Source: JBMFOH01 sp049969715 [NCBI: bacterium] (lineage in GTDB: Bacteria; DUMJ01). From it: a stretch of DNA of 20,413 nt. The notes below the pieces were generated by a model that was given only the letters and a program-made list of their open reading frames with translations, was not told where the DNA came from and searched no databases. Where the stretch lies: assembly GCA_049969715.1 (NCBI GenBank), contig JBMFOH010000030.1, positions 1-20,413 of the forward strand, written 5' to 3'. Made by a program: the position numbers and the translations under genes. This document shows, one piece after another, positions 1,862 to 20,245 of this stretch. Every line of letters begins with the position of its first letter. Positions within the stretch are counted from its first letter, which is position 1.

Positions 1862-1871
1862 TTTAGTAGTT

Positions 1872-1922
1872 AGGAGAAGTATAGAGAAACTTGTTCTAGA
1901 AATTTTGCTCTATACTTCCCCT
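1872..1922 (+). other. Intercistronic hairpin between binding-protein and permease genes
   Basis: The arms AGGAGAAGTATAGAG (1872-1886) and CTCTATACTTCCCCT (1908-1922) pair over 15 bases with one mismatch around a 21-base loop. The hairpin starts 11 bases after the stop codon of the binding-protein gene. No strong T-run follows. Such structures after malE-type genes typically protect the upstream message or partly stop transcription, so that more binding protein than permease is made. The opposite operon has a different hairpin in the same place (18631-18667). Confidence 0.7.
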
Positions 1923-1953
1923 ATTCTTTAAATCTAATAGAAAAGGAGTAGTT

Positions 1954-4571: not shown

Positions 4572-6039
4572 ACCTCTAGGTACTACAGTTTCTGTATTTT
4601 TTAATGATTCTCTAGGTTTTGCTATGGCTAGCTATTTATCTAGAATAGCTTCTACCTCATCTTTTGATTTTGGGTATTACTTCTTAGACCCTTGGTATCC
4701 TCAAGATGCCTGGGAAGACTTTCCTTATGATCATCAACCCTTTGATATTTATTGTCCTATGTCTAGTGGGGTAGTAACTGGAGAGGGAAAGACTATAGGA
4801 GCCGATGGTATAAGCTGTAGTGCTATAAATGATGATAATGGAGAGTTCTGTGAGGATGCGGTATACGAGGTAATACCTCATTTTAGAAAAGCTATTTTAC
4901 ATAGACCAGACGCTCCAGGGATATTAGTGTGGCTATTCCCATTTGAAGAATATAATAAAGTTGGGATTGGAGAACCTGATTTAATAAATAATCTATTCTT
5001 TTGGGATTGCTTTACAGCATCTGCTATAGATAATGGACTACCTCTAAATACTGTAATTTCCTCAAACAATTTCATTAAAAATAACTTCGCTATGTTAAAA
5101 GATTCGATTTTGTACTCCTGTGTACCTCTATATAACTGGGAATACAGTAAGAAATTAGAAGAATTTGTAAAACTTGGAGGAAAAGTTCTTCTATACGGTT
5201 CTATATTACATACAAGTGATGAGATAAGAAATTTGCTAAATCTAAAAGTTGGAGAAGGGATAGAGGGAGAGGTAGCACTAGTTCAGGAAAGGTATAATTT
5301 TATGAAAGATATAAATCCTTTTATCTATCATAAGGGGATTATCTCTGGAGGACCTATTGTAGAAGAATTAAAAGATTATAATGACCCTTACACTGAAGTT
5401 ATCTATGAAGTGGTAAAAGATGGGGAAAAGAAAGTATATTCAATACTAAGAAGTCTACCAGAGTGGAATGGGGGTAAGATAGCCTGGGTTAGAGGTACCC
5501 TCCCTTTTGAGTTAAATGGAGAGAATATCCAATTTAAAAATCCTTTGCCAGCGAAGATTCAGAGATTTCTTTTAGGGCTTCTTGGGTACTCTATAGAGCA
5601 AAGTCCGGATAATTTTAGAAACAGTCAGATATTTATCTCTAGACATAACAATGCATATATTTTCTCTGGTTATAAACCAGATACCACCGTAGAATTGTCT
5701 TTCAAATTCCCAGAAGGAGCTCCTATATTCTATAATTATGATACAGTTATAAAAGAGGGGACCTCTTCATATTGCCTTTCTAAGGCTTTCCACGAAGAAT
5801 GTAGGATCTTTGTAAAACAATTCTCTGGGAAAATAAAGTGTAGGCGTACTCTTAGACGTGAGTTTACTGAAGATGAGGTGGAAATTATTGGCTTAGAAAA
5901 TGCGGAAATAATATTTTATCCGCCAGAGACTAAGTTAGAAAAAGTGCAAGTAAGTCCTAGATATAAGATAGAAACATGTAGAGAGTTAAAGTTTATAAAA
6001 ATAAAGAATGTGAAGAGTAGTATATTACTATCCTGGTAA
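4513..6039 (+). CDS. Glycosidase-like protein, C-terminal part of the frameshifted gene
   Basis: This is the continuation of the gene starting at 3702. The nominal start is a GTG inside the G-run with no usable ribosome site of its own, so it is unlikely to be translated separately. Early residues complete the barrel (VSVFFNDSLGFAMASYLSRIA). Around fused residues 400-560 the pattern APGILVWLFPFEEY ... SCVPLYNWEYSKKLEEFVKL-GGKVLLYGS resembles the amidotransferase-like Rossmann domain that follows the barrel in GH42-type beta-galactosidases. A beta-rich C-terminal domain follows. The same architecture appears in the protein at 13058-15808. The remaining frame is intact to its stop, so any loss of function would be recent. 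Confidence 0.72.
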   Translation: MDISVKCVPIKEIHEKYLTRPLGTTVSVFFNDSLGFAMASYLSRIASTSSFDFGYYFLDPWYPQDAWEDFPYDHQPFDIYCPMSSGVVTGEGKTIGADGISCSAINDDNGEFCEDAVYEVIPHFRKAILHRPDAPGILVWLFPFEEYNKVGIGEPDLINNLFFWDCFTASAIDNGLPLNTVISSNNFIKNNFAMLKDSILYSCVPLYNWEYSKKLEEFVKLGGKVLLYGSILHTSDEIRNLLNLKVGEGIEGEVALVQERYNFMKDINPFIYHKGIISGGPIVEELKDYNDPYTEVIYEVVKDGEKKVYSILRSLPEWNGGKIAWVRGTLPFELNGENIQFKNPLPAKIQRFLLGLLGYSIEQSPDNFRNSQIFISRHNNAYIFSGYKPDTTVELSFKFPEGAPIFYNYDTVIKEGTSSYCLSKAFHEECRIFVKQFSGKIKCRRTLRREFTEDEVEIIGLENAEIIFYPPETKLEKVQVSPRYKIETCRELKFIKIKNVKSSILLSW

Positions 6040-6077: not shown

Positions 6078-8132
6078 ATGCCGATTTATCGTGATGCTGT
6101 ATACGGTGGAGAAACAGTTACTCTTGAAAATCAATATTTAAGATTTGAAGTTCATAAACGTTTAACTGGTTGGGGATGGGGAGAGCTATTTGTAGCTGAC
6201 AATAGTCAACAGTATAAGTTTATGGCAGTTTTAGAACATCTTGCCGAGGCAGATATATCAGGATTCCCTCATCCATTGAGGCTTGAGGCAAAGGAATACA
6301 AATTAGAGAAATCTAATGATAAGCAGGTGCTTTCCTTTGAGGTAAGACCTCAACCAGTAGATCCCCCAAGTGAATATCTATCAAAAGATTCTATACTGCA
6401 AGGTACCGTCAGATTTATTTTGCCAAACGATAAACCAATAATTCATTACGAGATGTCTTTAAGAAGTGAATGCCTAATTTATCTTAATTACATTCGTGGT
6501 CCATGGTTACGTATCGGAGTAGATAGTTTTGGCATGAAGAAATATGATGCTATATTCCCCGGAATAGAATGGGTAGTAGATGATGAATGGTCAAGTGGTA
6601 CTGATTGGTTCGAACATCCACAGGCTCTCCGAGTTGCTCCTCATCCATATAAAGTCGCTATACCTGTCATGGCTATCAGCTATGATGGAATTGGTATAGG
6701 ACTTTCATGGAATCCAGAGGAATCTATTCTTACTCCATGGACTAGTATTAGATGTCCACAGCCAGTTTTCGCTACACCTAACTTTATAGATCGTAGAAGT
6801 CATCACTTATTAGGACTAATGTATCCAAGTGCTCGTTGGGGTACAGATGAAAATAATTTACATGCTAAGTCACCTATTCTAGTAAGAAGGGGAGTGACGT
6901 TTCCTCTTCATGCCCAAATTTCAGTCGTAAAGGGTACTAGCTTAGACGTGATTTTAGACTGGGTCAAACGTAATGCTCTACCTGATCCTGGTCCACCAAG
7001 ATACAAGTGGGAAGAAGTACTAGATCGTATTGCAAAGGCTTATAATACCAATCTTTGGATTGAAGGAAAGGGCTGGGGGATTCGCGGAGAGGGTCAACCT
7101 GTTGTCCCTGATTTTATCTTGTATTACATTGAACATGGAACAGATCAAGAAGTTATTTCTGGTCTTAAAGAAAAAATCGCATGGTGTAAGAGTCAGAAGT
7201 TTAAAGTAACTAAGGAAGGGTCTGGTTCCTTGAGATATCCGTATCTCTCCAGACCATTAGACTGGATTTTAAATCATCCTGAAGATTCTCTTGAAATCGG
7301 GAATCAACTTCTCAAGATACAAACTCCAGAAGGTGATTTCCCCTTTGATCCATCTGGTAGACATTCTACCTTACTTCAGGATTGGGCTAATATGTGGCGT
7401 CCTTTAGGACATCCGGGGGATTCTGCTATAGACCTATGTTCAACTGCAAGCGCCTCGTTAATTCTTGCAGGGAGGAATACTGGAGAGTCCAAATTTATAG
7501 ATGCTGCTAGGAAAACTTTAGAATTTGCTACAAAGTTTGAACGCCCTGAAGGGGGAGATTGGTGGGAAACACCTCTATCAAGTCCCAATTTACTCGCTGC
7601 TGGGCATACTGCAATAGCCTGCTATCTAGGTTATCAGGAATTTAATGATAAGAGATATTTGGAAAAAGCTATTCGTTGGATTCGAAGTATTATTCCTTTT
7701 ACCCATTTATGGCAGCCAGAAGATATCCCTATGCTCTATAATACTAAGCCATGCTTCTGTAGCACCTCTTGGTTCTTAAGTGATTGGGTTTCCAAACATG
7801 TCCAATGGGAAGTTTTACAGATTTTTGCTAAGTCAGCCAAGATTGGTATTAATTGGGCAGAGCTTGATCCAGAGATAGATTGGGATAAGTTTCAAAAAGG
7901 GGTTACAACAGCTGTATTACGCTGGATGATAGATTCTAAAGATTCAGATTGGCTTACTCATTCTGAATATCCTTTAGAATTGATTAAAGACGGGAAGTGG
8001 GACACTTTATTCGCTGACACATTTGATCCTGTCAACAATACCTATGGTGGTGGACCAATTATGCCAGAACTAATTGCGGATAATGTTATAATTCTTTTAA
8101 AGAAAAACAGAGATAAAAAATCTGGGAGGTAA
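6078..8132 (+). CDS. Putative glycoside hydrolase, beta-sandwich plus (alpha/alpha)6 barrel
   Basis: This 684-residue cytoplasmic protein has no signal peptide. Residues 1 to about 300 are beta-rich and look like a sugar-enzyme sandwich domain (LENQYLRFEVHK, VRFILPNDKPIIHYEMSLR). Residues about 310-680 are helical and repetitive (YKWEEVLDRIAKAYN, FIDAARKTLEFATKF, RYLEKAIRWIRSII), as in six-hairpin glycosidases. Acid residues in aromatic settings, such as W495-W496-E497, may lie in the active site. The order sandwich then barrel recalls GH15/GH65/GH94, but I do not recognise the family. AGGAGG lies seven bases before the ATG. Nearly half of the arginine codons are CGN, unlike the transporter genes, which may point to separate acquisition. 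Confidence 0.7.
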   Translation: MPIYRDAVYGGETVTLENQYLRFEVHKRLTGWGWGELFVADNSQQYKFMAVLEHLAEADISGFPHPLRLEAKEYKLEKSNDKQVLSFEVRPQPVDPPSEYLSKDSILQGTVRFILPNDKPIIHYEMSLRSECLIYLNYIRGPWLRIGVDSFGMKKYDAIFPGIEWVVDDEWSSGTDWFEHPQALRVAPHPYKVAIPVMAISYDGIGIGLSWNPEESILTPWTSIRCPQPVFATPNFIDRRSHHLLGLMYPSARWGTDENNLHAKSPILVRRGVTFPLHAQISVVKGTSLDVILDWVKRNALPDPGPPRYKWEEVLDRIAKAYNTNLWIEGKGWGIRGEGQPVVPDFILYYIEHGTDQEVISGLKEKIAWCKSQKFKVTKEGSGSLRYPYLSRPLDWILNHPEDSLEIGNQLLKIQTPEGDFPFDPSGRHSTLLQDWANMWRPLGHPGDSAIDLCSTASASLILAGRNTGESKFIDAARKTLEFATKFERPEGGDWWETPLSSPNLLAAGHTAIACYLGYQEFNDKRYLEKAIRWIRSIIPFTHLWQPEDIPMLYNTKPCFCSTSWFLSDWVSKHVQWEVLQIFAKSAKIGINWAELDPEIDWDKFQKGVTTAVLRWMIDSKDSDWLTHSEYPLELIKDGKWDTLFADTFDPVNNTYGGGPIMPELIADNVIILLKKNRDKKSGR

Positions 8133-8136
8133 AGTT

Positions 8137-9927
8137 ATGATCAAATCTAATGCGTACGGTGTAACCCCACAATGGTTAGATGAACATTATAATAGTATTG
8201 TATCTGCTTGCCATAAGCAGAATATTACACATATTGGTATCACTACATCTATCACTGGTAAACTATTAACCTCTCCAGAAAAACTTAGAGAACTAAAAGA
8301 GAGATTAATTAATGATGGTATCACATGCTGGGCTGAGATAGTTTCTATCGGACATCCTGCTATGGGAAAATATTACGATCCTTTAGGTAGGCCTCCTACG
8401 CCAGATCTATTCTGGGATGGAGACTTAATAATTACTCCAGGAGACAATGTAGAGCTTTTGCCTCGTGGTTGGCAATATGCTATTAATGAATTTGGTAATC
8501 CTGTTTATTGTACTGCTTGCCCTAATGAAGCTTGGCTTAAAAGAAACCTGCGTGTCTTGAATGAACTAGCTCCAATTTTTGATGAGATCTGGTATGACGA
8601 TGATTTTCGCCTTGATGGAGATCAAGGAGCAGGAAAGCCTCATACAAGTACTGCTGCTTGCTACTGTGATGAATGTTTGGAAGAACTTTCTAAGAGGGTT
8701 GGAAATCGAATAATGCGTGAAGATATTTTATCTGATCAAGCTTTGCATAATGCCTGGATAGAGGCTAAAGTTGATAAGTTAACCTCTATGTGGGATATAC
8801 TCAGTCATACAGCTCACCAGATTAATCCTAAACTGCGTTTGGGATTAATGGTCCGTTGGGGAGGAGAAGAGCGTGATGGTATAGATATTGATAAAATATT
8901 ATCTCACTCTGGAAGTGATATTTTGTTACGTGCAGGGGAAGGACATTTTACTCGAGATGAATTTAATCTGCCAGAGAACCAAGCCATTGAATACCTTGTC
9001 ACTTCTTATCACATAAGTTGGTTCCCTCCTAAGACAAAAGTCTGGAGTGAGACCACTTACTTTACAGGCATTACAGAAGAAGATATTCTAAAGAAGATAG
9101 CTTTAGCTTTGGCATCTGGTGCGCAGGAATTATCCTACTGTCCCTGTGTACCAGAATGGATTGAAGAACAAAATTTCTTGAGTGAAAAATTAGAATTTAT
9201 AAAAAGATTGGGTAATATCTTTTCAAATGCTGAATTAATATATCAGCCTATCGCTATTCTACGTACCAAATCAGCAGGCTATGGGGATCGGTTTCCTCTT
9301 CAAAGGGTAAGAGATCGACAGCCTTTTCCTCTCTTCAGTCTAGCAGGTTTATGTGCTCAGGTTATTCGTCAAAACCACTGGTGTGATACTGGTAATCAAA
9401 AGATATTAGCTGTAACAGGCCGCAGTGTATGGGATTTTGATTTAGATGATCTAGGGGATCGACACTTAATACTAGATGGTTCAGCATTACTAGAGAATTC
9501 TCCTCTTAATGCTGAACTTGGACTTGCCAATATTACCAAAACTCTAGATGGCAGGGTAAATTTCTCTGGAGGGATATTTACAAGCGATGGGTTACTCTAT
9601 TCATCTTCTAGAATAACTATCATTCCTTATGTCTGGCAAGATGTGCCTGAGTCATTATTAAATCAGCTTCTCTACGACATCCGTCGTGTGATAGGCTCAA
9701 AAGCCCTTTCTGTAGTGGTAGAAGGAGATCTGTATGTATTGCCGGTTCACTATCGTCATAATGATTATGATGCTATCTTACTTGTCAATCTTACACACTC
9801 TCCTAGAGAGATAGCCCTATATCTAAAGGATACTCGTACACACCTTTATGATCAGGGAGGTATGCCGATAGATAAACATCTCATCCTTGCTCCTGATGAG
9901 ATTCGTATAATAATTGCCCGTGATTAG
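8137..9927 (+). CDS. Putative glycosidase, (beta/alpha)8 barrel with Cys motif
   Basis: This 596-residue protein has no signal peptide. The N-terminal 350 residues fit a TIM barrel of glycosidase type: a strand ending FDEIWYDDDFRLDG (D154-D156) and another at WSETTYF with E305 are candidate catalytic carboxylates. A cluster C175-x-C177-x-x-C180 (CYCDEC) follows the acidic strand, a pattern seen in several uncharacterised glycosidase-like families and possibly structural or metal-binding. The C-terminal part (ILDGSALLENSPLNAELG and a beta-rich tail) resembles the accessory domains of related enzymes. The ribosome site GGGAGG overlaps the end of the preceding gene, with a four-base gap between genes. 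About two thirds of arginine codons are CGN. The exact family is not recognised. Confidence 0.7.
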   Translation: MIKSNAYGVTPQWLDEHYNSIVSACHKQNITHIGITTSITGKLLTSPEKLRELKERLINDGITCWAEIVSIGHPAMGKYYDPLGRPPTPDLFWDGDLIITPGDNVELLPRGWQYAINEFGNPVYCTACPNEAWLKRNLRVLNELAPIFDEIWYDDDFRLDGDQGAGKPHTSTAACYCDECLEELSKRVGNRIMREDILSDQALHNAWIEAKVDKLTSMWDILSHTAHQINPKLRLGLMVRWGGEERDGIDIDKILSHSGSDILLRAGEGHFTRDEFNLPENQAIEYLVTSYHISWFPPKTKVWSETTYFTGITEEDILKKIALALASGAQELSYCPCVPEWIEEQNFLSEKLEFIKRLGNIFSNAELIYQPIAILRTKSAGYGDRFPLQRVRDRQPFPLFSLAGLCAQVIRQNHWCDTGNQKILAVTGRSVWDFDLDDLGDRHLILDGSALLENSPLNAELGLANITKTLDGRVNFSGGIFTSDGLLYSSSRITIIPYVWQDVPESLLNQLLYDIRRVIGSKALSVVVEGDLYVLPVHYRHNDYDAILLVNLTHSPREIALYLKDTRTHLYDQGGMPIDKHLILAPDEIRIIIARD

Positions 9928-9948
9928 CTAAGGAGTAATCTTAGTTAA
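9924..9948. terminator. Small hairpin at the convergent operon ends
   Basis: TTAGCTAAG (9924-9932) and CTTAGTTAA (9940-9948) form a nine-base stem with one wobble around a seven-base loop. It covers the stop codon of the plus-strand gene and the last codons and stop of the minus-strand gene. It might contribute to bidirectional termination. The stem is AT-rich and lacks a T-run, so this is a weak call. Confidence 0.3.
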
Positions 9949-11199
9949 ATAATAAATAGTTGGTTCTACGATGTGTAGATTATTTAGGAAGGGCTCTGTA
10001 TATTTTATGTCTCCAAATTCTCTATTATCAAAATGATGCTGAACTCCTACATGATTGTTCCAGTCTACTCCTTCAGTGAGAAAGCCAAAATCCCCATGAT
10101 GATGCTTTGCTATAGCTCTCAGTATAGTAAGTCCTTTGTTTAGATATACCTCATTCTTGGAGTCACTGTAGGCTTCTAAATAGGCTAATGATGCCTCTGC
10201 ATTTTCCCATAGATAGGCAGTATCCCAACTTCTCTCCATAAATAGTAAACCTTTAGTCGGTACACCATTTTTATCCTCTGTAAGTTCAAACTGGGTCAGT
10301 CCTACAAGAGAATCATTATAAGCAAAATCTTTTATCTTTTTATCATCTAGGATCTTACTGATTTTGTTTAAGACCCTAAAGGCAACCGCATAACTGACAT
10401 TCTCATTATCATCGTATGTATCATGATTGATACTCCCATAAAAGCCACCATTATCTATAAAAAGATAAGCATTCTTTCTCAACTCCTTAGAGTAATCTTT
10501 AAGATTTTTCTCTGTAAGTTCTGCCATAAGTTGTAGTATAAATAAACCGTCTCCACTGTGGTTCCATATCGGATCAAAACCGCCTTCTGCTCTTTCCCTA
10601 TAGATTTTTCCCTCCGGAGTTATTCTTCGCGGAAACCAACCATTTGGACATATTTCAGTTCTGGAAAGGATCCAGTCTAGAAGTTTTTTACCTATCCACA
10701 AAAGTTTATCCTTTTTCTCTTTGTCCTCTATAAGATCACCTACAATGATAAGCTGATAGCCTATCTTAGCTAAAGAACCTGGACATAGCCAGTCATTGTT
10801 ATGCTTAAAATTGAGACAAAATCTATCTTCTAATATATCTCTATAAGGATATATAAAGCAAGTTTTATAATCAATAAACCCATCTTCTAACACATGGTCT
10901 AGTATAGAAAGAGCTATCTTCTTTATCTCTTCATCCTTTATATATTCTGCATAGAGTAGAAGCTCATAATTTCCTCCAACTGCGTTTGCCGCCCATCCTG
11001 GACCTTCCAAGCCTCCAAAATCATGCCAGAACATTGGATTTCCATTTACATCTACAAAGGTAGATTTAGCACAGTAATGTCCATTATACTTTGTAAGACA
11101 GCAATTTATGACAAAGTTTACTGAATCTCTCATACTATCTAATATTGTATAAGAAGGGTTCTCTGAAAGAAAGAATATACTTTCATTAGATTTAGCCAT
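9928..11199 (-). CDS. Putative (alpha/alpha)6-barrel glycosidase-like protein, last gene of operon 2
   Basis: This 423-residue protein has no signal peptide and is predicted mostly helical. Paired-helix segments repeat through the chain (DSMRDSVNFVINCCL, YELLLYAEYI, DEEIKKIALSILDHVL, GDGLFILQLMAELTEK, WENAEASLAYLEAY), as in six-hairpin glycosidases, GH88/GH105 hydrolases and sugar epimerases of the AGE group. D217 in WNHSGDG, E332 in LWENAEAS and a His-rich stretch HHHGDFGF near residue 368 are likely pocket residues. The start is supported by AAGGAGGT six bases upstream. It is separated from the preceding gene by 148 bases, unlike the tight spacing elsewhere. Its stop codon abuts the stop of the convergent plus-strand gene. 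The substrate is unknown. Confidence 0.68.
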   Translation of the reverse strand: MAKSNESIFFLSENPSYTILDSMRDSVNFVINCCLTKYNGHYCAKSTFVDVNGNPMFWHDFGGLEGPGWAANAVGGNYELLLYAEYIKDEEIKKIALSILDHVLEDGFIDYKTCFIYPYRDILEDRFCLNFKHNNDWLCPGSLAKIGYQLIIVGDLIEDKEKKDKLLWIGKKLLDWILSRTEICPNGWFPRRITPEGKIYRERAEGGFDPIWNHSGDGLFILQLMAELTEKNLKDYSKELRKNAYLFIDNGGFYGSINHDTYDDNENVSYAVAFRVLNKISKILDDKKIKDFAYNDSLVGLTQFELTEDKNGVPTKGLLFMERSWDTAYLWENAEASLAYLEAYSDSKNEVYLNKGLTILRAIAKHHHGDFGFLTEGVDWNNHVGVQHHFDNREFGDIKYTEPFLNNLHIVEPTIYYLTKITP

Positions 11200-11244
11200 A
11201 ATTTACCTCCTTAAATATGATATATACTAATATAAGTTCTAAAA

Positions 11245-11288
11245 TCTTAAATAGTAAATACTACTTCAAAAAGAAATAGTAGTTAAGA
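11245..11288. other. Bulged inverted repeat in the 148-base gap of operon 2
   Basis: Inner arms ACTACT (11260-11265) and AGTAGT (11278-11283) surround a 12-base loop, and outer arms TCTTA (11245-11249) and TAAGA (11284-11288) can pair across a ten-base bulge. The outer motif matches the TCTTA/TAAGA repeats in the leader at 233-310. This gap (11200-11347) is the largest within either operon. I found no convincing promoter here, so the hairpin may be a processing or attenuation site. Chance is possible in AT-rich DNA. Confidence 0.25.
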
Positions 11289-11347
11289 AGAATAACTTGA
11301 AGTGTATTCAGTCCTTCTGATAAAACTGTTTGATCACTTATGTAATG

Positions 11348-13039
11348 TTAACATGAGTATACGTAGTTTAGTCGTCCATATGGAGCTGTATCTCCATTAA
11401 GGTAGAGATCTTTTATACTCCAGTCTCCCTTTATATTATCAGCCCATTTGAAATGAATTTCAAATGGGGTATCTCCATTACCCAAACCAAGTAAATCTCT
11501 AGGGATGGCAATCATCATTTCATTTCCCTCTACCCTCATTGGAGCTCGTCCTACTGGTACCCATCTCCATCCTCCTAAACTTCTGTGAATTACAGAGAAA
11601 TCGTTGTCGATAGTTATCATATTGACCATATAATGATAACCTTCCCACCCCACATCCTCATTATCCTCAATATGTAAAAGGAGCCACATCCAAGGGGTAA
11701 ATGAAACACCTTTAATTGGTTCTCTGGTACGCACATAGAAATAGATATTCTCATCATCTCTTGCCACTTTCATTGTATCGAAAGAATTCCGGCCTGAATC
11801 ATTGGTATATATAATGTTTCCATATCCTGGATGGTTACGATGCAGATTCCCAAAAGGCATATCATAATAAGTAGGCTGAACATCATCCCATTGAGTGAAT
11901 GGTCCTCTTATGTCAATTGTTTTCTTGGGACCAGCGTCCGGAATCGGATCTGTTCCCTTATATCTACGAACATAATCTATAAGTTGCATATAGTAGTTAT
12001 CGAAGTGTCCCCCCTTCATAGGTTCAATATCCCTACTGAACTCCCAATTAGCTTGGTCAATAAATGAAACTGGTCTATCTTTAGAACCACGGAAGCGCGG
12101 TGCAGTCCACTCATTCCATCCAGTAACAAATACTATCCTTGGGTCCTGTGAAATTGCATATTCCCACTGTTCTGCAAAATTAAATCCCCATAGGAGAGCA
12201 CCAGGTGTTTTATCGTTATAACCGTCGTGAAAAGCTCTTCCACGGTTTCTTATTTCACCATACATAGCAGAATCTCCAAATCTTAACTGCGGATGTTGGG
12301 CAACAGAAACACTTATAATCTCTGGGTTTCCAGCCTTATCTCGGAAGATATGTTGGGGACGTTCAAAATCGATCCATGGAAAACCTCCTTCCTTTGGAGG
12401 CTCTGTAGGCCATTGAGATAATCTAAATGTAAAAAATTCCTGAACTTCTCTACTACATTCCCACGGTAACCCAATGATAAGAGGTTTCCCTTCCCAGTAG
12501 AACCATGTATCAGGATAAAATGCAGGCTTATAAATATCTTCATAGATTTCCTGTATAGTTTCTCCTGACTTAGTATTCGTATAATAGACGACCTTTGGCA
12601 CATTCCAACCTGCCTGGATGTACTTGTTTAATACTGAAAGGATAAGTTTACAATCGTCTCTAAACGTTAAACGGTTGGTAGTATCAAATACTAAGAAGTC
12701 AACATCTGCAAAAGTGAGCATCTCTATATGTTTGTGGATTACCCATTCATCAGATGTAAGGTAGTATCCAAATAACGGTTCTCCCCAATAATAGATGCTT
12801 TCAGGGGGTCCCCAAGCTGGATGGTCAAAATCTCTTGCTACTTCAGGATGTTCTTGTAGTAGCTTAGTTACATTTATTGGTATACTATTCTTTACAGGAG
12901 ATTTATTAACAAAGTAGAATATGCCAACATATCGGTCTCTTCGTCTCGGACCCACTTTACTTAAGATCGGTAATCTACGCCCTAAAGCATCCTTACCTAC
13001 TAGAGGTCCAAATCCATAGTTTAGATAATTCTTATCCAT
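11348..13039 (-). CDS. GH71/GH99-like glycosidase with C-terminal CBM9-like domain
   Basis: This 563-residue protein has no signal peptide. The N-terminal part (about 1-350) resembles the GH71/GH99-like clan often found in polysaccharide loci: it opens with RYVGIFYFV, has GEPLFGYYLTSDEWVIHKH and DVDFLVFDTTN, and carries the hallmark FVTGWNEW (W308-N309-E310-W311), where E310 is a candidate catalytic acid. From about residue 372 a beta-rich domain follows (TIDIRGPFTQWDDVQPTY, MKVARDDENIYFYVRT), a pattern typical of CBM9-like sugar-binding or DOMON-like modules. AAGGAGGG precedes the ATG by seven bases, and the gap to the upstream gene is 18 bases. CBM9 modules are commoner in secreted enzymes, so an apparent cytoplasmic location is notable. 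Specificity is unknown. Confidence 0.78.
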   Translation of the reverse strand: MDKNYLNYGFGPLVGKDALGRRLPILSKVGPRRRDRYVGIFYFVNKSPVKNSIPINVTKLLQEHPEVARDFDHPAWGPPESIYYWGEPLFGYYLTSDEWVIHKHIEMLTFADVDFLVFDTTNRLTFRDDCKLILSVLNKYIQAGWNVPKVVYYTNTKSGETIQEIYEDIYKPAFYPDTWFYWEGKPLIIGLPWECSREVQEFFTFRLSQWPTEPPKEGGFPWIDFERPQHIFRDKAGNPEIISVSVAQHPQLRFGDSAMYGEIRNRGRAFHDGYNDKTPGALLWGFNFAEQWEYAISQDPRIVFVTGWNEWTAPRFRGSKDRPVSFIDQANWEFSRDIEPMKGGHFDNYYMQLIDYVRRYKGTDPIPDAGPKKTIDIRGPFTQWDDVQPTYYDMPFGNLHRNHPGYGNIIYTNDSGRNSFDTMKVARDDENIYFYVRTREPIKGVSFTPWMWLLLHIEDNEDVGWEGYHYMVNMITIDNDFSVIHRSLGGWRWVPVGRAPMRVEGNEMMIAIPRDLLGLGNGDTPFEIHFKWADNIKGDWSIKDLYLNGDTAPYGRLNYVYSC

Positions 13040-13057
13040 CTAGTAGCCCTCCTTTAA

Positions 13058-15808
13058 TTATAATAGGCAAATAAATTTCCCTTTTAGAGACTCTGAGATA
13101 ACTATACTTTCTTTAGATTCCAGGGTTAATTCCTTCTCTATAGAGGTAAAGGTATTATCTAGTACTCCCACCCTTTCTATTCCTTTAAGCTCGATTGGAA
13201 ATCTAAATCTACCGCTTACTGTTGAGTAAACAATCCAGCATTGAGTTATACCTGGTAAAAGCCTACTTGGATGAATCTTAGCAAAGAGAAGATCTCCAGG
13301 CTTATTTACAAATCTATATTCGATATTATCTATCTTTATTCCAGTAGTCGAATATCCAGCAAAACCAAAAAGCTTTCCTTCTTTATCGATATTGTAAGCC
13401 ATAACTTTATCTCCCTTATAAGATATTGTATGCGACCTGATTTTCTGGTTATTTAGAGTTATCCAAGTAGGTGGATAATCTATCCATTTTTCCTCTTTTC
13501 TAAAGAACTCTCCAGACCAGTCTTCTTTTAGTTCATAGTAATGTCTAGCTATAGATACAGAGCCGTTTGGAAATTGAGTAAATAGGTATGGAGTGCAATG
13601 AGAGAGTATTTCAAATTCTTCATAGCATCCTAATTTTTCTAATATTTGAAATAGAGTAAAGACCTTTTCAGATTGGTTATCTCTTATCCTAAAACCAAAA
13701 TATGCGCTTATTCCTTTCTCTTTTCTGATAAATCCTATAGGCACCCCCTCTAGTTCTGCTACTATCTGTGCATTATTAGGTTTTACTATATAAACCTTAT
13801 CAGGAAAAAGACTTGTTGGAATAGTCATTGATTCTACGCTTTCTAGTTCTTTTATGAAATTAACCCTTCTCCCAGGATAAAATCCTTCTTCAACTTTAAA
13901 ACTCTCGTTTATACCGAATAAACTGCACCATTTAGGGTAGACATCTCTTCCTGTTGGAGAAAGCATCGCTGGTATAGACATCCATATAACATTTCCCCCT
14001 AAATCTATAAAATCTTTAAGGAATGCTAATGTCTTCTCTCTTATAATAGGCTGAAAGAGGACTACTATAGTATTGTAAGTTTTGTCATATATCTTTAACT
14101 TGCCATCAGTTGTTAGCGAACTGTGCTTCAAAAGCATCTCCTCTGTTATATAGTCAGCATATCCATACTGTACCATCCAACTTCCAAACCTGTCATTCGC
14201 ATAGAGAAGTTCTAATGGATATAACATTAATACTGAAGTATACCTGGTTTGAAAATCTTGGACATATCTAACTATATTCTCTAAGCTATTTGCTACCCCA
14301 TAGGCAGATGCTACATTTAAGAATCTCTCCGTTGCCTCTCTAGGAGAACCCCATGTCCCACAGTACGTAACAGGAAATCTATTAATATTAGCAAAGCTAA
14401 CTGCCATAGCCATTCCATAGTAGTTTCTATCTAAGTTTCCTCCTTCAGGAAAATCGTTACCCTCTCCGGTCAAAAATTCCCCCCATTTGAAATAATCATA
14501 ACAAGCACTTACTCCTTCTCTTACAGAGGAAGATGCTATATAATGAGGTCCATAATCATATCTAGAGATGTTTTCTCTTAGAGGTTTTCCAAATGAATAG
14601 TCTTCATCATATTGGTCGCAGGTAGGAGATTCCTGCCAGGTGGCATGAGCTTGTGTATACTGTATAGTTTCAAATTTCCTTTCTGCATATTTCAATGCTT
14701 TTACATATATATCTACAACTCTTTCATTTAGAAGAGCAAAATAGTTTTTCCTTAGTAACCATGTCTTATAAATCCCATTATTACTAGGCTCTATTATATG
14801 TTGAATAGGCCAATTCTTAAAATTATCATCCATATGATGCGCAAAGTAAACTAAATATTTAGGGAAGTCTTCAAACTCTTCCCCATACCTTTCACAGAAT
14901 TCTCTAATAAGATTTGGTGTAATATATCTGGCTTGAATCTCTGTTTTGCCAAAATGGGCAGAAAGGTCCCAATCAAATTGAATGTGCATCTCATCAGAAT
15001 AGAATCCTGACAGAATTATACCTGCATCTTTATAAGAGTCTATCACTGCCTTTATAAAGGCTTCGCACTTTGAACTAAAATAGTCCATTTCTTCTGCTTT
15101 ATATATAAGCACAATCAGAATAGCTTCGACTTCGGTAATGTCCGAAACATTACCTTTTACAAGAATCTCTGCTTTAGAATACCCGGAATTATAAGTTATT
15201 TCAGAATCGGAAATTAGTTGGTACTCTATAGTATCATCTATCAGCTTTATATTGTCTTTGGGTACATAGAAATATTCATCATTAAACTTTTCTTCTTTGT
15301 ATCTATAGCCTATTACCTTTTCTAATGTAAGTCTACATGGCCCTTTATTGTGAAACCAGACCTTCTGTAATGGAAGAGTAATCTTAAAGTTGCCATCTTC
15401 TCCTGGTTTTATCTCTCTATATTGATACCAATATCCAATATCCTCATACTTTCTTACATAAGCCGGTCCTAAATCTAATGGACTTATAATACTTGCGGTA
15501 AAGAGGAGCCCGTAATTTTGAGCTACATTGTACAATACCTTATAGGCATTTATACATTCTGGATCAGGAGGATAAAACCTTCTTTCCTTTCCTCCAAAGA
15601 AAAAGTCATAAGATACGCCTATAATTTTACCTCCAGACTTTTTTATCTCTTCACATACCTCAGAAAAACTCTTCTGAAATGATTTCTGTCTATAACTATA
15701 TGGATCTCTAGCTACTGCAAGCAGCTCTTCATCACTAGTAATTATAAAAGCCCCACTTCCTCTAATAAGATTCCACTTACCACAGTCTAATAAGATTCTC
15801 CTTCCCAT
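13058..15808 (-). CDS. Large glycosidase-like protein, TIM barrel plus amidotransferase-like domain
   Basis: This 916-residue cytoplasmic-type protein has no signal peptide. The N-terminal half looks like an elaborated (beta/alpha)8 barrel with an inserted beta region (about residues 110-240). The segment GIILSGFYSDEMHIQFDW (D272, E273) ends a strand and is a candidate acid/base site. Around residues 520-690 the pattern SVLMLYPLELLYAND ... NTIVVLFQPIIREKTLAFLKDF-IDLGGNVIWMS matches the Rossmann-like domain of GH42-type enzymes. A beta-rich tail ends the chain. The architecture parallels the frameshifted gene at 3702-6039, suggesting distant relatives placed at matching positions in the two operons. 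GGAGGA lies six bases before the ATG. I do not recognise a named family. Confidence 0.7.
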   Translation of the reverse strand: MGRRILLDCGKWNLIRGSGAFIITSDEELLAVARDPYSYRQKSFQKSFSEVCEEIKKSGGKIIGVSYDFFFGGKERRFYPPDPECINAYKVLYNVAQNYGLLFTASIISPLDLGPAYVRKYEDIGYWYQYREIKPGEDGNFKITLPLQKVWFHNKGPCRLTLEKVIGYRYKEEKFNDEYFYVPKDNIKLIDDTIEYQLISDSEITYNSGYSKAEILVKGNVSDITEVEAILIVLIYKAEEMDYFSSKCEAFIKAVIDSYKDAGIILSGFYSDEMHIQFDWDLSAHFGKTEIQARYITPNLIREFCERYGEEFEDFPKYLVYFAHHMDDNFKNWPIQHIIEPSNNGIYKTWLLRKNYFALLNERVVDIYVKALKYAERKFETIQYTQAHATWQESPTCDQYDEDYSFGKPLRENISRYDYGPHYIASSSVREGVSACYDYFKWGEFLTGEGNDFPEGGNLDRNYYGMAMAVSFANINRFPVTYCGTWGSPREATERFLNVASAYGVANSLENIVRYVQDFQTRYTSVLMLYPLELLYANDRFGSWMVQYGYADYITEEMLLKHSSLTTDGKLKIYDKTYNTIVVLFQPIIREKTLAFLKDFIDLGGNVIWMSIPAMLSPTGRDVYPKWCSLFGINESFKVEEGFYPGRRVNFIKELESVESMTIPTSLFPDKVYIVKPNNAQIVAELEGVPIGFIRKEKGISAYFGFRIRDNQSEKVFTLFQILEKLGCYEEFEILSHCTPYLFTQFPNGSVSIARHYYELKEDWSGEFFRKEEKWIDYPPTWITLNNQKIRSHTISYKGDKVMAYNIDKEGKLFGFAGYSTTGIKIDNIEYRFVNKPGDLLFAKIHPSRLLPGITQCWIVYSTVSGRFRFPIELKGIERVGVLDNTFTSIEKELTLESKESIVISESLKGKFICLL

Positions 15809-15821
15809 AATAATCCTCCGT

Positions 15822-16646
15822 TTATGCCTTCAAGGCACCAGCAATAATTCCTTGAATGTAGTATCTCATACCAAATAGAAATATAAAAACAAGAGGTAAT
15901 GCAGATATTCCATAAGCTGCCAACTGAGGACCCATATCAGTTATTCCATACTCAGAGACAAATGTCCTCAGACCCACTGTTACAACCTGGAGCCTAGTAT
16001 CACTTATAGTGATAAGAGGCCATATAAAGTCATTATAAGTTCCTGAGAAATTCATAATAGCAAGGGTAATCATAATAGGATAAGAGAGTGGGACAGCAAT
16101 CTTTGAATATAACTGAAATTCATTTGCTCCGTCTATCTGAGCAGAGTCAAATAACTCTTGAGGTAGAGTTGAGAAAAAGCTTCTACATAGAAGTATTCCA
16201 AAAACTTGTCCTCCAGATATCCACGGCAAAATTAATACCCACCTTGTATTTACTAGTCTTAATTGGTAAACCAAGACATAAGATGGGATTAATGTGAGAA
16301 TCCCAGGAATCATCATCAAAGAGAGAATTGCATAGAATATTACCTCTTTCCCAGGAAACCATCTCCTAGCAAAGATATATCCAGACATAGAAGAAAGCAA
16401 AAGAACACCTCCAAGGGCTAAACTAGATGCTATAAGGCTATTCTTCATATAATTTTTGATACCATTAAAACCTTCTATATAATTACCAAACTTCCAGGGA
16501 CTAGGTAACCCCCAAAAATTCCCATATATCTGAGCATTATCTTTAAAAGACATAACTATCATCATAATCACAGGGACAAACACTAAAAATAGAAAGAAGA
16601 TGAGTACTATCCAAATAAACAATTGTGATATCTTTTTGATATCCAT
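15822..16646 (-). CDS. ABC sugar transporter permease, MalG type, operon 2
   Basis: This 274-residue membrane subunit has about six hydrophobic segments, the first at residues 9-33 (FIWIVLIFFLFLVFVPV...). The ATPase-contacting loop starts at E164 (ELFDSAQIDGAN, then IAVPLSYP), exactly the same residue number as in the operon 1 counterpart. The C-terminus YYIQGIIAGALKA is typical. It should pair with the propeller-permease fusion encoded immediately upstream (gap nine bases) and with an ATPase not encoded here. AAGGAGG precedes the ATG. The glycosidase gene follows after 13 bases. Confidence 0.93.
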   Translation of the reverse strand: MDIKKISQLFIWIVLIFFLFLVFVPVIMMIVMSFKDNAQIYGNFWGLPSPWKFGNYIEGFNGIKNYMKNSLIASSLALGGVLLLSSMSGYIFARRWFPGKEVIFYAILSLMMIPGILTLIPSYVLVYQLRLVNTRWVLILPWISGGQVFGILLCRSFFSTLPQELFDSAQIDGANEFQLYSKIAVPLSYPIMITLAIMNFSGTYNDFIWPLITISDTRLQVVTVGLRTFVSEYGITDMGPQLAAYGISALPLVFIFLFGMRYYIQGIIAGALKA

Positions 16647-16655
16647 TTCTCCTCC

Positions 16656-18599
16656 TTACGCTTCATATTCGATTGAGGACCTTACATATCTCATATTGAT
16701 GATAGTACCAATAAGTATTACTATAAACAATACAGTAGCTATAGCTGATGCATAACCAAACTTGTTAAACCTCATAGCAGAATAGTAGAGCTGTAATGCT
16801 GGGACATATGTAGAAGAAGCTGGTCCTCCACCTGTCATTATGAATATAGTTGTAAAATCTTGCATAGTTCCTATATAGGTAAGGACAATTAACAACTTAA
16901 TCTGTCCCAAAAGTAGAGGAAGGTCTATGTTAAAGAATCTCTGAAAACTATTAGCTCCATCTACTCTTGCAGCATCAAAGAGTTCTGAAGGTACAGAGAT
17001 AAGTCCACCATAGTAGATAAGAAACGGAAATGCCCCTACCCATGGTATCCCCATAAATATAATAGACCATAAGGCAATACCAGGTTCACCTAACCAAGAG
17101 TGAGTATAATGTTCGAGTCCTATACTTCTTAATAGTTGGTTTAAAAGTCCAATGTTTGGATCATAGATCATCGTCCAAAGGAGAATGGATACTATACCTG
17201 GGACAACGATTGGAAGCACATATGCAACCCTCATCCAGTACTGAGCTTTAAAAGACCTTAGATGGAACACTAATTCAGCCACTAGTAAAGGCATCGTAAG
17301 AATCTTAATAATGTTTGTAATAAGGAGTAATAATAGGTTCTTTATACCAACTGTTAAATATGGGTCATACTTCATCTGTTTAAAGTTTTCCCACCCAATC
17401 CAGGTGGTAACACCTCCCGGATGCCAATCTGTAAAGGCATGATATATTCCTGAAAATGCAGGATAATAGTTGAATGTAGCTAAAAAGAGAATAGTAGGAA
17501 GAATAAACAGATACATAGTCTTGTATTTCCAAAATAATCTCATCACAGAAGTGACTCTTCCCCAACGTCTTCTCTCTATTTCTTTTCTAGTAGAACTAAG
17601 GAATATAGATAATATATATATCCCTATTAATATACCAATACAAATCCCTATCCATATATATATTCTTATTCTTAAGTTTTTGGCAGATATTATCTCTTTA
17701 AGAGTTGTACTAGAGAATGAACCTTCAAAATTACCTACACAGATGAGTGTTCCGTCTGGAGAGACATTAGTAGCCCACACTTCTTGAGTATTACCTATTT
17801 TATTTATCAGATTACCTCTTTCATCAAGAATATATAGATTCTTATCCCTTGATCCCCCCACTACCACCTTAGCATCATTAGAACATCCTACAGATAAGAC
17901 GTAATCTCCGGTAGTATAATTCCAGATTTCTTTGCCATTTATATCTAAAAGATAGATGTTGTTATCCTCAGAACCTATAGCTACATACTTCTTATCAGGA
18001 GAGATAGAGATAGTCCTTATATATCCATTAGCTTGAAAGTTCCAAAGAGACCTTCCACTAGTATCAAATGCATATACTGTAGCTCCCTTCCCTCCACAAA
18101 GAACTATATTGCCATCATAAGATATGCTTGTTGAGTGTAACTCTTCCCCTATAGCTTGTTTCCAAAGGATATCTCCTTTAGAATTTAATAAGTACAGGCT
18201 TCTATCGAGGCTACTAGTAGAAACACTTATATATTTACCCTCTTCAGAAATCCCTACCCCAGAAATTATATCTTGAAAAAGGACCTTCCAAATGAGATCG
18301 CCTTTTCTGTCTAAGAGATAGACATATCTATCCTCAGAGCCGACTGCTATATATCCACCATCTGGAGAGATACTTACACTATTGACTGTCCCACCAACTT
18401 TAAATTCCCAGATTTTATTGCCATCTCTACTTAACAGATAGACATAATCATCTCTTGATCCAACAGCAATAAATTCACCTTTACCATCTATTGAGATACT
18501 ATATATAGCATCCTTAGCTTTAAAGCTCCAGCTAGCAAGAATTACTGTAGGAATTAAGACAAAAATGATAAGAAAGAATAAAATGGACAATTTTCGCAT
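16656..18599 (-). CDS. Fusion of secreted seven-bladed beta-propeller and MalF-type permease
   Basis: This 647-residue protein, counted from the ATG at 18599, is the MalF-type subunit of transporter 2 with an unusual N-terminal extension. Residues 1-22 are a signal-peptide-like segment (MRKLSILFFLIIFVLIPTVI). Residues 23 to about 297 contain seven repeats of about 40 residues with the pattern SISPDG..IAVGSED..VYLLD..G..IW, a PQQ/WD-like propeller; the SWSFKA strand at the start could close the last blade. One membrane helix (311-333) and a strongly basic stretch (RKEIERRRWGR) follow, then a complete permease from about 361 with the signature loop at E539 (ELFDAARVDGAN). The topology is consistent: propeller outside, basic loop inside. 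The frame is open throughout. GGAGGA supports this start; an upstream ATG at 18659 lies inside a hairpin and is rejected. Confidence 0.9.
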   Translation of the reverse strand: MRKLSILFFLIIFVLIPTVILASWSFKAKDAIYSISIDGKGEFIAVGSRDDYVYLLSRDGNKIWEFKVGGTVNSVSISPDGGYIAVGSEDRYVYLLDRKGDLIWKVLFQDIISGVGISEEGKYISVSTSSLDRSLYLLNSKGDILWKQAIGEELHSTSISYDGNIVLCGGKGATVYAFDTSGRSLWNFQANGYIRTISISPDKKYVAIGSEDNNIYLLDINGKEIWNYTTGDYVLSVGCSNDAKVVVGGSRDKNLYILDERGNLINKIGNTQEVWATNVSPDGTLICVGNFEGSFSSTTLKEIISAKNLRIRIYIWIGICIGILIGIYILSIFLSSTRKEIERRRWGRVTSVMRLFWKYKTMYLFILPTILFLATFNYYPAFSGIYHAFTDWHPGGVTTWIGWENFKQMKYDPYLTVGIKNLLLLLITNIIKILTMPLLVAELVFHLRSFKAQYWMRVAYVLPIVVPGIVSILLWTMIYDPNIGLLNQLLRSIGLEHYTHSWLGEPGIALWSIIFMGIPWVGAFPFLIYYGGLISVPSELFDAARVDGANSFQRFFNIDLPLLLGQIKLLIVLTYIGTMQDFTTIFIMTGGGPASSTYVPALQLYYSAMRFNKFGYASAIATVLFIVILIGTIINMRYVRSSIEYEA

Positions 18600-18630: not shown

Positions 18631-18667
18631 GATATAAGATGCCAGGGACTCCCTGGCATCTTATATC
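18631..18667 (-). other. Perfect 17-base-pair intercistronic hairpin
   Basis: GATATAAGATGCCAGGG (18631-18647) and CCCTGGCATCTTATATC (18651-18667) are perfect complements around a three-base loop. The hairpin starts 12 bases after the stop of the binding-protein gene and ends about 30 bases before the start of the permease fusion. No T-run follows on the transcribed strand, so it is unlikely to be a full terminator. It matches in position the hairpin at 1872-1922 in the other operon and probably stabilises the binding-protein message or reduces read-through. Confidence 0.85.
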
Positions 18668-18679
18668 GTTAGATGTTTA

Positions 18680-20245
18680 CTATTTCTTCCTTTCGGGAGG
18701 TTTCTTTTCTGGATGTTCTAAATCCTCCATTGTTAATCCCAACATATCTAACACCCCAGGAAGATGTTTCTGGATGGAAGCTTGATAGTTCTTTAAAAAC
18801 TCGTCTAAGGTTAGTTTATCCATAAAATACTTCTGAGCTAGATCGACCCATTCTTGGACACTAGGCTGATAGTCATAGAGTCCTCTTGCCCTAAATGTTC
18901 CAGCGGTATCCTTTTCCATATTTCCTAGGACCTTTACTTGGGAGAATTTCTTCTTTAGTGCAGGAGAAACCTCTATATTCTTTATTAACGGAGCTCCTGA
19001 TAATCCTCCTCTTGGATTAACAGGGCTAAGTGCAGTCTTAACATACGTACTGAAGCCTTGTGGGCTTGTTACAAACATAAGGAAGTTCATCTCAAGGTCA
19101 TTCTGCTTCTTAGACTTCTTTGGAATACCCCAGAAGCCTACTGGCCACTCTATGGTCCTTATAGGCGCTTGGACTAGCGGACCTGACATACCAGGCATAG
19201 GAAATATTCCATAACCAAAAGGTTTAAGAGTAGTTTTTTCTGTTGCTGCAAGATTCTTTAGGTCTTTCTCAAAAGTGCTTATAAGCCAGGTTCCATCTAA
19301 CCACATAGCTGCCTTCTGAGTAAGGAATAGTGGATAGGCATTAGTTACACCTGTAAATCCTGGAGGGGTATATTCTGGTATCATCTGCTTGAAGTTAATA
19401 TACTGATCTCTCCACTCAGGAGAATCTACTCTAAGCACTCCATCTTTTACAGCACGAAGCTTTCTAAGAATGTTAAAGGTAATCTTATTGGCATCATCGT
19501 TTGTTGGATCGTTATAATCTGGTTTCCATTTATCATCTATACCTGGTCTAAAGCAATAATCCCCTGGCTTAGCTCTTACAATCTCTGCCTCTTTTCTTGT
19601 ATATTGGTCTGCATAAATTCTAGCTACCCAACCTACTCTCATCTCCCAGAATGAACGATAATCCCCCTCTATTGCCCAAGGAATATACCCTTTGGCCTTT
19701 AGTTTTTTAGACACACTTACAAGCTCATTCCAATTAGTAGGAGGATTTATACCTGTCTGAGCAAATGCGTTTTTGTTGTAGAACCAAGTCACTTGAACTA
19801 GGAATGGACTAAATGCATAAAATTCTCCAGTTAACGGGTCTCTTTGTGACATAACTACTACTGGGTCGAAATCTTCTCTCCATGGTCTATTAGTATAAGG
19901 ATTTATCTTATCTAGATACATAGAAAGATCGAGGAATCTTTTCGCATGTATCAAATCTGCTACAACATTGCAACCTACAAGCGATGCCTTTGGTTCACCA
20001 GCAGCAAACTGTGCCCTTATCCACTCAGGATAACCCTCTGGAGGCTTTAGCTCTACATGAACCTTTACCCCTGGATTTATTTTCATATAAGCCTTGGCAA
20101 CGGCTTCCCAACTCATCTTATCTTGACCAGGAAGGTTTATATAAATCTCTCCCTCTAGTCCTTGGGCAGGAAGAGGTAAAGCAACAAACAACGAACCAGT
20201 AACAAACACTATAACAAGTAAATAAATTAACAAAACCTTCTTCAT
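18680..20245 (-). CDS. ABC transporter sugar-binding protein (CUT1-type), operon 2
   Basis: This secreted solute-binding protein of 521 residues would feed the permease pair encoded downstream. Residues 1 to about 28 form a signal peptide (MKKVLLIYLLVIVFVTGSLF..., cleavage near PAQG) with no lipobox cysteine. The mature chain starts with a strand EGEIYINLPGQ and has family features: TWFYNKNAF, PTNWNELV, and PGFTGVTNAYPLFL followed by KAAMWLDGTW, closely matching the operon 1 protein. The C-terminus is a charged tail (EHPEKKPPERKK) not typical of the family. AGGAGG lies about eight bases before the ATG. The family is clear; the ligand is unknown but may be related to that of the operon 1 protein. 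Confidence 0.93.
   Translation of the reverse strand: MKKVLLIYLLVIVFVTGSLFVALPLPAQGLEGEIYINLPGQDKMSWEAVAKAYMKINPGVKVHVELKPPEGYPEWIRAQFAAGEPKASLVGCNVVADLIHAKRFLDLSMYLDKINPYTNRPWREDFDPVVVMSQRDPLTGEFYAFSPFLVQVTWFYNKNAFAQTGINPPTNWNELVSVSKKLKAKGYIPWAIEGDYRSFWEMRVGWVARIYADQYTRKEAEIVRAKPGDYCFRPGIDDKWKPDYNDPTNDDANKITFNILRKLRAVKDGVLRVDSPEWRDQYINFKQMIPEYTPPGFTGVTNAYPLFLTQKAAMWLDGTWLISTFEKDLKNLAATEKTTLKPFGYGIFPMPGMSGPLVQAPIRTIEWPVGFWGIPKKSKKQNDLEMNFLMFVTSPQGFSTYVKTALSPVNPRGGLSGAPLIKNIEVSPALKKKFSQVKVLGNMEKDTAGTFRARGLYDYQPSVQEWVDLAQKYFMDKLTLDEFLKNYQASIQKHLPGVLDMLGLTMEDLEHPEKKPPERKK

What the first reader, a model, noticed from the sequence alone, without database searches (positions are those of the whole stretch)
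16656..18599. Beta-propeller receptor fused to an ABC sugar permease
The sequence shows one open frame holding a signal-like segment, seven propeller repeats, one membrane helix, a basic linker and a complete MalF-type permease. Its paralogue at 1954-2862 lacks the first 340 or so residues. MalF-family permeases normally carry at most a periplasmic loop. A secreted propeller tethered to the channel could bind polysaccharide or the cell wall, dock the binding protein, or sense ligand. I know of no characterised example, so this is the best candidate for an undescribed transporter architecture.
Basis: partly seen in the sequence, partly recalled or inferred. Interest (0 to 1): 0.8.

Follow-up and report, generated by a model that had tools for sequence, protein, structure and literature searches.

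The report
Sugar importer with fused beta-propeller
One channel subunit of a bacterial sugar importer carries a seven-bladed, disc-shaped protein domain fixed to the outside of the membrane; the same fusion recurs in Chloroflexota and Paenibacillus-family genomes, in the latter often beside enzymes that cut the plant sugar rhamnose, so it is a real transporter variant that seems undescribed.

Summary
The gene is on the minus strand (18599 to 16656, 647 aa, no internal stop): signal peptide, seven-bladed WD40/PQQ-like propeller (23-299), membrane helix (about 300-334), basic linker, MalF-type permease. It is not a chimera. The single-frame fusion, in the order SBP gene, fused permease, MalG gene, occurs in 24 of 42 named loci (all with Chloroflexota titles), in 21 of 298 sampled genomes of one Anaerolineae class and in 31 of 295 of one Paenibacillus family. 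In a MalF tree all 37 fused rows and only two unfused rows stand apart from nine other unfused rows. An alpha-L-rhamnosidase gene lies within 5 kb in 10 of 10 picked Paenibacillus-family genomes (seven of these loci already seen), and at 12 of 21 fetched Bacillota loci; those members probably import rhamnose-containing oligosaccharides. For the window this rests on one shared neighbour gene. The propeller diverges faster than the permease (28% against 57% identity), and its blade order is not traceable between the window and Chloroflexota, as if it had been rebuilt while the architecture stayed. My best mechanism is a docking or hand-over platform for the binding protein; glycan capture is a close rival.

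The parts
18680..20245 (-). Solute-binding protein gene (SBP_bac_1, 521 aa), first gene of the operon; signal peptide without a Cys in its first 35 residues, so no lipobox
   Evidence: sequence; PF01547 4.9e-23; the same SBP subfamily adjoins fused permeases elsewhere
18631..18667 (-). 17-bp RNA hairpin between the SBP and fused permease genes, a likely internal terminator
   Evidence: -30.4 kcal/mol, z -8.15 against 200 shuffles; precedent in the abstract of PMC9045158
16656..18599 (-). Fused gene, 647 aa: signal, propeller, TM0, linker and MalF-type permease
18534..18599 (-). Signal-peptide-like segment, residues 1-22
   Evidence: hydropathy; helix 2-20
17703..18533 (-). Seven-bladed propeller, residues 23-299 (residues 24/25-27 close blade 7)
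   Evidence: 28 strands; Foldseek, TM-score on the target 0.85-0.90 for its first four rows (designed WRAP-T and natural PkwA seven-bladed propellers)
17598..17702 (-). Membrane helix TM0, residues 300-334, directly after the last blade
   Evidence: 308-338 hydrophobic; helix 300-334
17526..17597 (-). Basic linker, residues 335-358
   Evidence: alignment
16659..17525 (-). MalF-type permease, residues 359-647
   Evidence: PF00528; MalF 2r6g_F 4.3e-23 over residues 394-641
15822..16646 (-). MalG-type partner permease gene
   Evidence: (PF00528 2.3e-12)
13058..15808 (-). 916-aa conserved gene without a Pfam match; a relative follows a fused operon in L116
   Evidence: none; L116, 5e-195
11348..13039 (-). 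563-aa conserved gene without a Pfam match; relatives beside fused operons in L096, L101, L102 and L110
   Evidence: 3e-177, 3e-31, 8e-35, 2e-49; the relative in L101 has a sub-threshold GH99 match, 20.5 bits against 33

Best explanation
This is a type I ABC oligosaccharide importer (SBP, MalF-type, MalG-type; the ATPase is presumably encoded elsewhere) in which the MalF-type subunit carries an exported seven-bladed propeller, set on the membrane by an extra helix that runs on from the last blade. Shown: one protein, its domain order, the conserved operon, and a fused group shared by the window, Chloroflexota and Bacillota. Strongly inferred: the propeller is outside the membrane (signal peptide, then helix, then positive linker). 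Inferred: the Paenibacillus-family members import alpha-L-rhamnose-containing oligosaccharides, and the window member perhaps a related glycan. Inferred, my choice among several: the propeller is a docking or hand-over platform that holds the binding protein of the same operon beside the channel mouth, so that its scaffold and position are kept while its surface changes freely. Rough odds: architecture 0.97, importer 0.9, rhamnosides in Paenibacillus 0.7, in the window 0.4, docking role 0.4.
For: Single intact frame and domains. Fusions in 24 of 42 named loci, 21 of 298 genomes of an Anaerolineae class and 31 of 295 of a Paenibacillus family, centre genomes included. The order SBP, fused, MalG is kept: MalG adjoins in 24 of 24 named fused loci, and the same SBP subfamily in 23 of 24 (the 24th contig starts inside the gene). 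In the MalF tree nine unfused rows form one starred group; the other 39 rows are the 37 fused ones and two unfused ones, with two label changes in all. The last blade runs straight into TM0. Rhamnosidase gene within 5 kb of the fused gene in 10 of 10 picked genomes (coordinates; not blind: seven of these loci had been read), against about 2% per locus expected from 95 matches in about 70 Mb; relatives of the two P. dokdonensis rhamnosidases at 12 of 21 fetched Bacillota loci; rhaA and an FGGY kinase gene in the P. dokdonensis cluster; GH106 at L111. Precedent for a propeller protein that acts directly on an SBP: AztD and AztC (PMC6689063, passages).
Against: Nothing measured shows contact between propeller and SBP. 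The mirror-tree test gave no specific propeller-SBP signal (partial r 0.16, and 0.04 within one clade), but it also failed for the assumed MalF-SBP contact (0.12, 0.03), so it has no power. No segment of 5 or more columns in the SBP separates fused from unfused systems (one stretch of 4 columns; 21 fused and only two unfused rows). Two members with the same SBP subfamily do without a propeller (L056, L057), so it is not indispensable. No relative of those two rhamnosidases (E up to 1e-12) was found in the stretches held for any Chloroflexota locus or in the window, nor at 9 of the 21 Bacillota loci.
Confidence: 0.42

Rival explanations
1. The propeller is a glycan-capturing domain: it binds a polysaccharide or cell-surface polymer and concentrates substrate at the importer, like a carbohydrate-binding module.
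For: Inferred position outside the membrane; operons beside glycoside hydrolases; fast divergence as expected for changing specificities; an above-cut-off match to the lambda-carrageenase propeller family (68.3 bits against 26.8), one of many propeller families matched.
Against: The propeller columns kept across 24 fused proteins are scaffold-like, without a shared aromatic patch (surface not mapped). A domain fixed next to the channel would lie below the cell wall in Paenibacillus (general knowledge).
Confidence: 0.27
2. The propeller holds a non-lipidated binding protein at the cell surface so that it is not lost.
For: The SBPs of the window, of L020, L059, L061, L062, L065 and L091 and of L116 (by eye) show no lipobox.
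Against: 22 of 23 named Chloroflexota loci with the SBP start have a lipobox by a liberal pattern, and most Paenibacillus-family ones by eye.
Confidence: 0.08
3. The propeller is a sensor or regulator of the importer (gating by ligand or envelope state).
For: Propellers of bacterial protein kinases are among the sequence and fold matches (PkwA and a membrane-associated kinase; AfsK model, far below its cut-off).
Against: No signalling domain is fused, and the linker is little conserved (13% identity).
Confidence: 0.1
4. The domain is a passive passenger: an old fusion kept by drift, with no function in transport.
For: Low sequence conservation and two unfused relatives.
Against: Intact frames with N-terminal parts of similar length persist across phyla, and blades appear to have been rebuilt without loss of the domain.
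Confidence: 0.1
5. Assembly or frameshift artefact joining two genes.
For: None found.
Against: The same arrangement in many assemblies, including the isolate Paenibacillus dokdonensis.
Confidence: 0.01

Closest known systems
MalF of the E. coli maltose importer (PDB 2r6g chain F)
   Same: Permease core, residues 394-641 against MalF 253-511; MalG partner and SBP in one operon.
   Different: E. coli MalF has its extra periplasmic part as the P2 loop between membrane helices (recalled); here an N-terminal propeller with its own helix lies outside the permease core, and no such insert is seen.
Importers with a substrate-binding domain fused to the permease (OpuA, GlnPQ; recalled, not fetched)
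   Same: An extracytoplasmic domain fused to a permease through a membrane segment.
   Different: The fused domain is a propeller, not a binding-protein fold, and the SBP is a separate gene.
AztD, zinc chaperone acting with AztC (PMC6689063, passages seen)
   Same: An extracellular beta-propeller protein encoded with an ABC importer that passes its cargo directly to the SBP.
   Different: Separate zinc protein with an eight-bladed fold; no fusion, different substrate.
Re-amplified, highly repetitive propellers (PMC9218822: abstract start, three passages)
   Same: Propellers amplified anew from single blades; the window's blades may be such a case.
   Different: That text has no hit for ABC, permease or transmembrane.
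Bacillus subtilis YesOPQ rhamnogalacturonan importer (YesO in the title of PMC7596534, search listing only; YesP/Q recalled)
   Same: SBP-dependent sugar import linked to rhamnose-containing plant glycans (recalled).
   Different: As recalled, its permeases are of ordinary length, without a propeller; not tested here.

Membership tests
Type I ABC importer, MalF-type permease | BPD_transp_1 domain over cut-off | tested here: met
   51.3 bits against 26.4
Type I ABC importer, MalF-type permease | EAA-type cytoplasmic loop (motif recalled) | tested here: met
   By eye: ELFDAARVDGANSFQRFFNIDLP
Type I ABC importer, MalF-type permease | Operon with SBP and MalG-type partner | tested here: met
   (gene order and families; one transcript not tested)
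Type I ABC importer, MalF-type permease | Transport of a sugar with a cognate ATPase | not testable with these tools
   No ATPase match among the ten window proteins scanned; no assay possible
E. coli-type MalF | P2 periplasmic loop between membrane helices | tested here: not met
   similarity starts at MalF residue 253; the window permease core is 289 residues and aligns to the 302-aa paralogue without a long insert
WD40/PQQ-type beta-propeller | Closed ring of four-stranded blades | tested here: met
   Predicted, not solved: (28 strands, seven blades); one search matches to seven-bladed structures
Importers with SBP domain fused to the permease | Fused domain has an SBP fold | tested here: not met
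   propeller
BamB | Full-length family model over cut-off | tested here: not met
   TIGR03300 62.2 bits against 285.2

The most novel reading that the evidence does not exclude
A class of ABC sugar importers keeps a dedicated propeller slot on its permease: what selection preserves is a seven-bladed ring at the channel mouth, not a given sequence, and that ring has been rebuilt or replaced several times (window lineage, L063, the main Paenibacillus group, the second clade) while SBP, permease and partner descended together. The ring would be a working part of substrate delivery, a mode of SBP-channel coupling not known from the maltose paradigm.
Probability: 0.3. Interest if true: 0.75.

Novelty: new variant of a known kind. 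Interest (0 to 1): 0.55.

Why it matters
ABC importers of this type are among the best studied transporters, and the extra parts I know of are loops, SBP domains or cytoplasmic regulators (recalled). A propeller fused to the channel subunit in about one tenth of sampled Paenibacillus-family genomes, including a cultured isolate, is a testable addition: it asks how the SBP meets the channel, and it gives a candidate importer for rhamnose-containing plant glycans.

Tried and rejected
SBP-retention idea: rejected as a general explanation, because most SBPs beside fused permeases have a lipobox. Co-evolution by mirror tree: no power. A docking insert in the SBP: none found. Tracing blades by order: kept between Chloroflexota clade-1 members (8-12 of 12 best-blade hits in the nine pairs at permease identity 0.55-0.61 that leave out L063), near chance for the window against eight clade-1 members, L063 included (1-5 of 12), intermediate for L063 against the seven others (4-7 of 12); saturation of a fast domain cannot be excluded, and blade limits came from one alignment. 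PDB bit scores of designed repetitive propellers were not used to infer origin, because repeats inflate them. Catalytic or ligand site in the propeller: none recognised among conserved columns. Solved-structure searches of the 916-, 563- and 684-aa genes gave nothing usable. The viral-contig scans gave one partial propeller locus and nothing. Host identity: no genome is held; the paralogous SBP and permease are 90% and 87% identical to SKW194, whose phylum holds only three genomes here, none with the fusion. A text search for SKW194 hit only an unrelated virus paper.

Rows mislabelled or dropped: L023 was counted as unfused because its contig starts inside the gene; corrected. L071 was labelled fused but has no propeller match; L068 and L069 are MalF-MalG double ORFs; L070 gave no row. 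L023 and L071 were left out. One search used 13 representatives, one search compared six proteins with up to 18. Of 21 Bacillota loci (L096-L116) 20 entered: L097 dropped out because the ORF picker took an antisense frame; for the same reason the SBP of L111 was not seen. Large genome searches scored only 3-4 candidates per genome, so their counts are lower bounds; they include the centre genome, which was known to be fused (without it 20 of 297, 30 of 294, 2 of 399 and 1 of 347); several G genomes are the same as named loci, so the samples must not be added up. The text searches list 20 of 22 and 15 of 21 papers; I judged them by titles and abstract starts.

Full report
Observation. Pfam finds propeller families (PQQ_2, WD40) and BPD_transp_1 over their cut-offs in the same protein. 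Hydropathy gives a signal-like segment, a helix at 308-338 and the permease helices. Two AlphaFold2 models agree on 28 strands, seven blades, an N-terminal closing strand and a helix 300-334 that starts right after the last blade; the propeller blocks have pLDDT 86-96, the permease is poorly modelled in both. Foldseek puts designed and natural seven-bladed WD40-type propellers on top. Signal, outside domain, helix, then a basic stretch fits an exported propeller by the positive-inside rule (inference).

It is not an artefact. A scan of one genome per species for the permease family (two short patterns, so far from exhaustive) gave 42 loci; 24 of them (L002-L024, L042) are the same fusion, all with Chloroflexota titles and 37-41% identical to the window in the best segment. 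L023 is cut by its contig end. All 24 have a MalG gene next to it, and 23 an SBP gene of the same subfamily on the other side. In samples of whole genomes with the window protein as query I count fusions (match from the propeller into the permease in one frame) in 21 of 298 genomes of the class of G003, the genome of L002, 3 of 400 of the phylum of G005, the genome of L020, 2 of 348 of the phylum of G665, the genome of Paenibacillus dokdonensis, and 0 of 3 of the small phylum of SKW194. Apart from the last, each count includes its centre genome. In the family of G665, 27 of 295 genomes show it in the match itself; four more (G888, G905, G861, G790) show it when their loci are read, so 31 of 295. 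Four of these rows (G717, G849, G882, G829) report one stop inside the matched stretch; for G829 the frame read at L102 is intact to the permease end (648 aa), the other three I did not examine. In the plasmid collection 2515 records match and none covers 80% of the query in one place.

Descent. In a careful MalF-domain tree of 48 rows the label fused/unfused changes twice. Nine unfused rows, with the window's own paralogue, form one starred group (100/99). The other 39 rows are the 37 fused ones, from the window, Chloroflexota and Bacillota, and L056 and L057, which are unfused yet have the same SBP subfamily. An earlier tree put 25 fused rows and these two in one starred group of 27 (99/98). 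One old gain and one loss is the simplest reading; the root is not known, and the place of L056 and L057 inside is weakly supported (85/59). The close relatives of the window's paralogous operon are SKW194 (SBP 90%, permease 87% identical) and G002 (permease 89%), in a phylum with three genomes here, so the window probably belongs to that rare lineage.

Conservation. Against Chloroflexota clade 1 the window protein is 57% identical in the permease, 28% in the propeller, 12% in TM0 and 13% in the linker; the SBP is 45% and MalG 55% identical. Columns kept in at least 80% of 24 fused proteins in the propeller are Gly, Asp/Asn, Leu and Trp, of the blade-scaffold kind. Blade order is traceable between Chloroflexota members at permease identity 0.55-0.61 (8-12 of 12 best-blade hits in nine pairs without L063), also across phyla in the second clade (L112 against L058, L092, L093: 9-12 of 12), but not between the window and eight clade-1 members (1-5 of 12; chance is 2) and only partly for L063 (4-7 of 12). 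The main Paenibacillus group keeps order inside (10-12 of 12 in four pairs with L096) but not against clade 1 (1-3 of 12 in six pairs, at permease identity 0.43-0.51); L101 and L116 give 1-6 of 12 against the members compared. The window's own blades resemble one another more (mean 0.35) than their counterparts (0.30). This fits re-amplification or replacement of the propeller with the architecture kept; rapid divergence alone is not excluded, the less so for the deeper comparisons.

Function. The gene order is SBP, fused permease, MalG in the window and elsewhere. In P. dokdonensis the cluster also has a GntR-type regulator, two alpha-L-rhamnosidase genes, an FGGY kinase and RhaA. In 10 of 10 fused genomes of its family that I picked from the full-length rows, a PF17389 rhamnosidase lies 2.2-4.7 kb from the fused gene (coordinates); with 95 matches in about 70 Mb, about 2% per locus would be expected. 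The pick was not blind (seven of the ten loci had been read), and the genomes are related. Over all 21 fetched Bacillota loci, 12 hold a relative of the two P. dokdonensis rhamnosidases within the stretch held and 9 do not; among the nine, L111 has a GH106 protein and L112 a GH141-like one. Chloroflexota loci show no such relative. Of ten neighbour proteins scanned there, two are sulfatases, two have weak alpha-L-fucosidase matches over cut-off, two are oxidoreductases, one a LacI-type regulator, one a PhyH protein, and two match nothing. The window's link to the rhamnose setting is its 563-aa gene, with relatives beside four of the 21 Bacillota loci (L096, L101, L102, L110). Its 916-aa gene recurs after the fused operon of L116, and its 684-aa gene beside fused operons of L060, L062, L076 and L091. 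So rhamnosides are likely for the Paenibacillus family and a guess for the window.

Mechanism. The propeller is inferred to stand outside, with almost no linker to TM0, so it should lie next to the channel mouth where the SBP docks. I choose a docking or hand-over platform: position and scaffold kept, surface free to change with the SBP. Against it: no measured contact, a mirror-tree test without power, no matching insert in the SBP, and two members without a propeller. Glycan capture is the main rival. Retention of unlipidated SBPs fails as a general rule. AztD shows that a propeller can act directly on the SBP of an ABC importer (PMC6689063, passages).

Hairpin. A 17-bp stem-loop (18631-18667, z -8.15) separates the SBP gene from the fused gene, as described for SBP-permease operons in Clostridia (PMC9045158, abstract).

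Novelty. The parts are known kinds; the combination is a new variant. Text searches for it returned nothing that describes it as far as titles and abstract starts show; three of them had no hit at all (21, 22, 88), and subscription papers and preprints are not covered. No NCBIfam model passes its cut-off on the fused protein.

Noticed in passing
3702-6039 (+): One gene, intact as 775 aa in L038, is split in the window into two overlapping ORFs (74.6% and 69.1% identical to its two parts): a frameshift, real or from sequencing.
   Followed up: partly
6078-15808: Five long genes (423, 563, 596, 684 and 916 aa) without any Pfam or NCBIfam match; three of them recur beside fused importers in other phyla. 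Candidates for undescribed carbohydrate-active enzymes.
   Followed up: partly
18631-18667 (-) and 1860-1955 (+): Stem-loops after both SBP genes (z -8.15, and a weaker -2.41 with 6 of 200 shuffles as good), like internal terminators that set the SBP-to-permease ratio.
   Followed up: partly
L068:1800-3770 (-) and L069:349-2322 (-): Single ORFs of about 656 aa that match both MalF and MalG: apparent tandem permease fusions in the genomes of L020 and L023.
   Followed up: no
L071:3916-5661 (-): A permease with about 330 extra N-terminal residues that do not match the propeller.
   Followed up: no
L060:4702-6510 and 9735-11480 (+): Two similar SBP genes (both match the window SBP at 2e-173 or better) flank one fused permease and MalG pair.
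   Followed up: no
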